This document shows positions 36,322-36,491 of a stretch of DNA of 64,000 bases, piece after piece. Each line of letters begins with the position of its first letter. The first letter of the stretch is position 1. The notes beneath the pieces were generated by a model. That model had not been told where the DNA came from. It searched no databases and saw only the letters and a program-made list of their open reading frames with translations. The position numbers and the translations under genes were made by a program. Source of the stretch: Methanofollis liminatans DSM 4140 (GTDB lineage Archaea; Halobacteriota; Methanomicrobia; Methanomicrobiales; Methanofollaceae); the NCBI RefSeq assembly GCF_000275865.1, contig NZ_CM001555.1:1700967-1764966 (forward strand), in the 5' to 3' direction.

Positions 36322-36491
36322 GGGGTCGTGGCCTAGTCCGGAATGGCGACGGGCTCCAGCGGTCTTTGCGTGTGATGAACAATGGGTCTGCTGATGATGA
36401 TGATGACCCGTTGGAGCACTGATGCGAGTCATGCTCCCCGCGCATGTTCGGAGAGACCCGTCGATCGTGAGTTCAAATCTCACCGACCCCA
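36322..36491 (+). tRNA. tRNA-Trp (CCA) with a 96-base intron
   Basis: Exon 1 is 36322-36359 and exon 2 36456-36491, which join into a 74-base tRNA with acceptor GGGGTCG/CGACCCC, anticodon stem ACGGG/CCCGT and loop CTCCAGA. The intron (36360-36455) follows position 37, the canonical archaeal site, and is excised at a bulge-helix-bulge. Its inside is a box C/D guide RNA (separate entry). Confidence 0.93.
36360..36455 (+). ncRNA. Box C/D guide RNA within the tRNA-Trp intron
   Basis: Box C GTGATGA at 36372-36378, D' CTGA at 36391-36394, C' within TGATGATGATGA after it, and D CTGA at 36419-36422. The base five positions before D pairs with C34 and the one five before D' pairs with C39 of the same tRNA. 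This agrees with the known intron-guided 2'-O-methylation of euryarchaeal pre-tRNA-Trp. Confidence 0.88.

What the first reader, a model, noticed from the sequence alone, without database searches (positions are those of the whole stretch)
36322..36491. tRNA-Trp intron carries a C/D guide matched to its own tRNA at C34 and C39
Boxes C, D', C' and D are all present. The guide before D pairs best with the unspliced junction (ten pairs running into the intron), while the guide before D' gives nine pairs with the spliced molecule and eight with the precursor. The D guide therefore favours precursor and D' tolerates either. Target 39 is C here, where haloarchaea have U.
Basis: partly seen in the sequence, partly recalled or inferred. 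Interest (0 to 1): 0.6.

Follow-up and report, generated by a model that had tools for sequence, protein, structure and literature searches.

The report
Known methylation guide in tRNA-Trp intron
The removable insert inside this archaeon's tryptophan tRNA gene carries a small guide RNA that directs two methyl marks onto that same tRNA; this is a known, widely conserved arrangement, and comparison with relatives suggests that both marks are aimed at the tRNA before the insert is cut out.

Summary
Window 36322-36491 is tRNA-Trp(CCA) with a 96-nt intron at 37/38. The intron holds a complete box C/D guide RNA that Rfam already models as RF01133 (sR3; 59.7 bits, cut-off 41). The pairings are as described: the D guide has 10 pairs with the precursor and 7 with spliced tRNA; the D' guide has 8 and 9. 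In dinucleotide shuffles of the intron, 0 of 20,000 reach both guides.

This is published biology: tRNA-Trp introns guiding Cm34 and Um39, or Cm39 (PMC2584109, PMC6313347, passages). RF01133 is found in 133 of 150 genomes of the order.

One part of the reading is not supported. "D' tolerates either" rests on a ninth pair whose guide base varies freely in relatives (G in 35 of 88 distinct order precursors). Across 150 distinct precursors, D' guide position 3 matches the last intron base in 149 but exon base 37 in only 102; D guide position 9 matches the first intron base in 150. Both guides appear fitted to the unspliced precursor. C39 is the common state. Low novelty.

The parts
36322..36359 (+). 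tRNA-Trp 5' exon (positions 1-37, anticodon CCA; C34 at 36356)
36360..36455 (+). 96-nt intron at canonical position 37/38
36368..36424 (+). box C/D guide RNA, Rfam RF01133 (sR3)
   Evidence: 59.7 bits, cut-off 41
36373..36378 (+). box C, TGATGA
   Evidence: sequence
36379..36390 (+). 12-nt D' guide; G36386 faces C39; pairs with last two intron bases and 38-43
36391..36394 (+). box D', CTGA
36401..36406 (+). box C' (TGATGA; exact placement ambiguous because of the GAT run 36392-36406)
   Evidence: alignment; 12-nt spacing to box D
36407..36418 (+). 12-nt D guide; G36414 faces C34; pairs with 31-37 and first three intron bases
36419..36422 (+). box D, CTGA
36450..36453 (+). GGAG, 3' strand of the 4-bp BHB central helix with 32-35 (CUCC)
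   Evidence: 4 of 4 pairs
36456..36491 (+). tRNA-Trp 3' exon (38-73; C39 at 36457)

Best explanation
This is the tRNA-Trp intronic box C/D guide RNA of archaea (Rfam sR3). In the unspliced transcript the intron forms a C/D RNP (fibrillarin found here; Nop5 and L7Ae presumed). Its D guide pairs across the 5' splice junction and places C34 for 2'-O-methylation; its D' guide pairs across the 3' splice junction and places C39. The splicing endonuclease then cuts the bulge-helix-bulge. Shown by sequence: tRNA, intron, boxes, spacing, guides, BHB, conservation, covariation with junction bases. Inferred: that both methylations happen on the precursor and that the RNP acts in trans. Methylation itself was not tested.
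For: RF01133 match. Box layout, 12-nt spacers and N+5 targets. 0 of 20,000 shuffles match both guides. RF01133 in 133 of 150 genomes of the order, 104 of 108 good-quality ones. Across 150 distinct precursors from the phylum: target 39 / guide base is C/G 112, U/A 29, U/G 9; D' position 3 / last intron base is C/G 111, A/U 38, C/U 1; D position 9 / first intron base is G/C 110, U/A 39, G/U 1. Those two intron bases lie in the unpaired bulges of the BHB, so BHB pairing does not explain the covariation. Swapping guides between the C39 and U39 groups lowers the mean pairs from 7.7-8.0 to 5.2-5.8 of 8 for D', and from 9.8-10.0 to 8.0-8.7 of 10 for D. Fibrillarin and the splicing endonuclease are present in the genome. 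Published Cm34/Um39 or Cm39 by tRNA-Trp intron guides (passages).
Against: No methylation data. The 150 precursors are not independent: U39, A41, A+1 and U-1 mark essentially one clade, with one genome (L242, G244) carrying only A41 and A+1. In this genome the D' duplex is stronger with spliced tRNA. 39 of 150 precursors have a longer D' run with spliced tRNA. One precursor (L275) breaks the last-intron-base match. L073 has an extra T before D', and L265 has lost both guides.
Confidence: 0.9

Rival explanations
1. The D guide acts on the precursor, but C39 is methylated after splicing by the released (possibly circular) intron RNP.
For: In this genome the D' guide has 9 pairs and -14.6 kcal/mol with spliced tRNA against 8 and -12.9 with the precursor. 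Circular tRNA-Trp introns are detected in Thermococcus and Haloferax (passages).
Against: The ninth pair is not conserved, and wherever base 37 differs from the last intron base in the A37 and U39 groups the guide follows the intron: 48 of 48. PMC2584109 states that both methylations must precede splicing.
Confidence: 0.15
2. The intron is only a splicing substrate in this lineage, and the guide is a relic without methylation activity.
For: In H. volcanii the intron can be removed without loss of viability (secondary statement in PMC7714728). Some genomes have lost the guide or the intron.
Against: Guides conserved in 150 of 152 distinct long-intron precursors, with target-matched changes.
Confidence: 0.03
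3. The match is a chance resemblance.
For: None found.
Against: 0 of 20,000 shuffles; RF01133 E 2.5e-12.
Confidence: 0.005

Closest known systems
Rfam RF01133 (sR3), archaeal C/D box RNA
   Same: Full-length match 1-55 of 55, same guides and boxes, 59.7 bits
   Different: Two-base insertion in the D'-C' loop; nothing else of note
Haloferax volcanii / Pyrococcus tRNA-Trp intron guide (sR50 in Pyrococcus, as named in PMC7994747)
   Same: Intron at 37/38 (stated for Haloferax), guides for positions 34 and 39, BHB splicing (PMC2584109 and PMC7994747, passages)
   Different: Position 39 is C with guide G here, U with guide A (or G) in the U39 group; last intron base G here, U there; first intron base C here, A there
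Cm34/Cm39 entry in review PMC6313347
   Same: Table lists 'Cm34 and Um39 (or Cm39)' made by an intron C/D guide (passage)
   Different: The passage names no organism for Cm39

Membership tests
Rfam RF01133 sR3 | Score over curated cut-off | tested here: met
   59.7 bits against 41, full model length
Archaeal box C/D guide RNA | Boxes C, D', C', D with 12-nt spacers | tested here: met
   C' placement ambiguous within a GAT run; that 12 nt is the usual archaeal spacing is recalled
Archaeal box C/D guide RNA | N+5 guide pairing with a target | tested here: met
   C34 and C39; 150 of 152 distinct long-intron precursors have at least 5 of 6 exon pairs in both guides; the N+5 rule itself is recalled
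Archaeal box C/D guide RNA | Fibrillarin in the genome | tested here: met
   PF01269, E 4.2e-64
Archaeal box C/D guide RNA | Nop5 and L7Ae in the genome | not tested
   Not searched
tRNA-Trp intronic guide | Guide lies in the intron of its own target tRNA | tested here: met
tRNA-Trp intronic guide | BHB splice motif and splicing endonuclease | tested here: met
   4-bp helix and 3-nt bulges; PF01974 two matches in a 351-aa frame
tRNA-Trp intronic guide | 2'-O-methylation at 34 and 39 in the tRNA | not testable with these tools
   Needs RNA data

The most novel reading that the evidence does not exclude
Methylation of both residues is tied to the unspliced state: each guide reads one splice junction, and its bases follow the bulge bases of the intron rather than the exon. 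The intron would then mark tRNA-Trp before it allows itself to be cut out, with loss lineages (such as G076, with a BHB-intact intron and decayed guides) as natural knock-outs.
Probability: 0.3. Interest if true: 0.4.

Novelty: already known. Interest (0 to 1): 0.18.

Why it matters
It confirms a known guide RNA in one more archaeon. It also supplies a broad comparative test (150 distinct precursors) that the two guides track the unspliced junctions, and it names lineages that lost the guide and could show what the marks are for.

Tried and rejected
A free-standing guide in genomes that lack an intronic one: the exact pattern over 36 genomes matched only this genome, G287 (intronic) and G155. 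The G155 match lies antisense within a 129-aa open frame and has a single C and D box (read), so I take it as chance. The pattern is strict, so a divergent free guide could be missed.

A named survey for guide base A returned mostly bacterial chance matches. None of the 80 listed loci parsed as tRNA-Trp, so they were dropped. That scan was wasted.

Rfam on the five loci with long D'-C' inserts gave sR3 and two sub-threshold tmRNA matches (14.2 and 13.1 bits, cut-off 47), taken as chance.

Genomes without an RF01133 match (17 of 150): of six looked at further, G076 has a decayed guide and G132 has an intron with an N gap. G053, G091, G062 and G110 gave no tRNA-Trp by three patterns; the one match in G062 did not parse. 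Two more of the 17 (G109, G147) were tried with the 3'-junction pattern only, without a match. The other nine were not examined.

Rows dropped before counts: three of 92 loci did not parse (L070, L079, L091). L276 and L281 and L286, L290, L312 and L314 did not parse. One search counts distinct precursors among 215 parsed loci (some loci repeat one place); it left out 14 short-intron or intronless ones, and 2 long ones failed the guide rule.

Full report
What is there. Window 36322-36491 is tRNA-Trp(CCA) with a 96-nt intron between positions 37 and 38. ARAGORN, as run, missed it, while Rfam finds both the tRNA and, inside the intron, the C/D RNA family RF01133 (sR3) far above its cut-off. Boxes C, D', C' and D are present, with 12-nt guide spacers. 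The intron ends form a bulge-helix-bulge: 32-35 (CUCC) pair with GGAG near the intron end, with three-base bulges AG|C and AG|A. The genome has fibrillarin and the splicing endonuclease. RF01133 occurs once in the genome.

Continuous pairing including the target base is 10 (precursor) and 7 (spliced) for D, and 8 and 9 for D'. Duplex energies are -20.4 and -11.5 kcal/mol for D, and -12.9 and -14.6 for D'. Of 20,000 dinucleotide shuffles of the intron, none reaches the exon runs of both guides.

Conservation. In the order, 133 of 150 genomes have an RF01133 match, 118 of 150 over the cut-off, and 104 of 108 good-quality genomes have a match. I fetched only part of these: 30 loci and 60 more. 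With the window and this genome's own locus, 89 of 92 parsed. A 5'-exon pattern then found a match in 44 of 48 chosen genomes, most of them from the rest of the phylum, and a second pattern made for the U39 type matched in 82 of 390. Together 215 loci parsed into 166 distinct precursors; 152 have introns of 45 nt or more, and 150 of these carry both guides by a rule that looks only at exon bases.

Test of precursor against spliced target. The rule that picked the guides did not use the junction bases, so those can be judged. D' position 3 and the last intron base are C/G in 111, A/U in 38 and C/U in 1, so 149 of 150 pair. The same guide base pairs with exon base 37 in 102 of 150. D position 9 pairs with the first intron base in 150 of 150 (G/C 110, U/A 39, G/U 1), and with base 38 in 39 of 150. 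D position 10 pairs with intron base 2 in 150 of 150 and with base 39 in none. The two junction bases sit in the unpaired bulges of the splice motif, so splice-motif pairing does not explain the match. Where the two forms can be told apart (10 precursors with A37, 38 with U39), D' has the longer run with the precursor in all 48. Against this: for the 112 C39 precursors the comparison is mixed (46 precursor longer, 27 equal, 39 spliced longer), L275 breaks the rule, and the U39 group is essentially one clade, so the events are few. Bulge bases can also change without a guide: short introns without a C/D guide (L280, L307-L310) have A first and U last as well.

C39. The base at 39 is C in 112 and U in 38 of 150 distinct precursors, with guide G in all 112, and guide A (29) or G (9) in the 38. 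C39 is therefore the common state in this sample and the guide follows it. The sample is weighted towards the window's own order.

What is known. PMC2584109 (passages) states that Cm34 and Um39 of tRNA-Trp are made by the intronic C/D guide, a situation found in at least 29 archaea, that part of the intron pairs with the guide, and that both methylations must precede splicing. It cites in vitro work that favours action in trans. PMC6313347 (passage) lists 'Cm34 and Um39 (or Cm39)'. PMC7994747 (passages) and PMC7714728 (passages) give the same account, the latter with the report that the intron is dispensable in H. volcanii. PMC12247713 (passages) did not bear on the guide. Three primary papers (2001, 2003, 2008) were asked for and are not held; the 2004 one is known here only through citations. 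I therefore do not claim that the junction covariation is new in print.

Verdict. A real, well-conserved, already known element. Its reading of D' is not supported by relatives, and C39 is not unusual outside the U39 group.

Noticed in passing
L055, L059, L061, L063, L065 (tRNA-Trp introns of 129-207 nt): The D'-C' loop of the guide carries inserts of roughly 50-110 nt, partly hairpin-forming by eye, while both guides are kept (first seen).
   Followed up: partly
L265 (genome G076): A 96-nt tRNA-Trp intron with intact splice motif but both guides decayed; no RF01133 match and no free guide by exact pattern.
   Followed up: partly
L291-L303, L306 (families f10 and f11); L264, L307-L310 (f12, f16): tRNA-Trp without an intron in 13 of 15 f10 genomes searched and in one f11 genome, and with 31-39-nt introns without a C/D guide in f12 and f16; no convincing free guide found.
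   Followed up: partly
U39 precursors with CTGGTATAC guide (e.g. L248-L250, L330-L341): Nine distinct U39 precursors have guide G opposite U39, a wobble pair at the methylation site.
   Followed up: no
G236:C107:21947-21988: A family f8 genome holds a guide stretch like that of the g16 type of the window's order; likely a contaminating contig.
   Followed up: no
L073: One extra T between the D' guide and box D' shifts the register, so the predicted target would be A38 rather than C39.
   Followed up: no
window 36392-36406: A GAT run gives several overlapping box C' copies, a possible slippage site.
   Followed up: no
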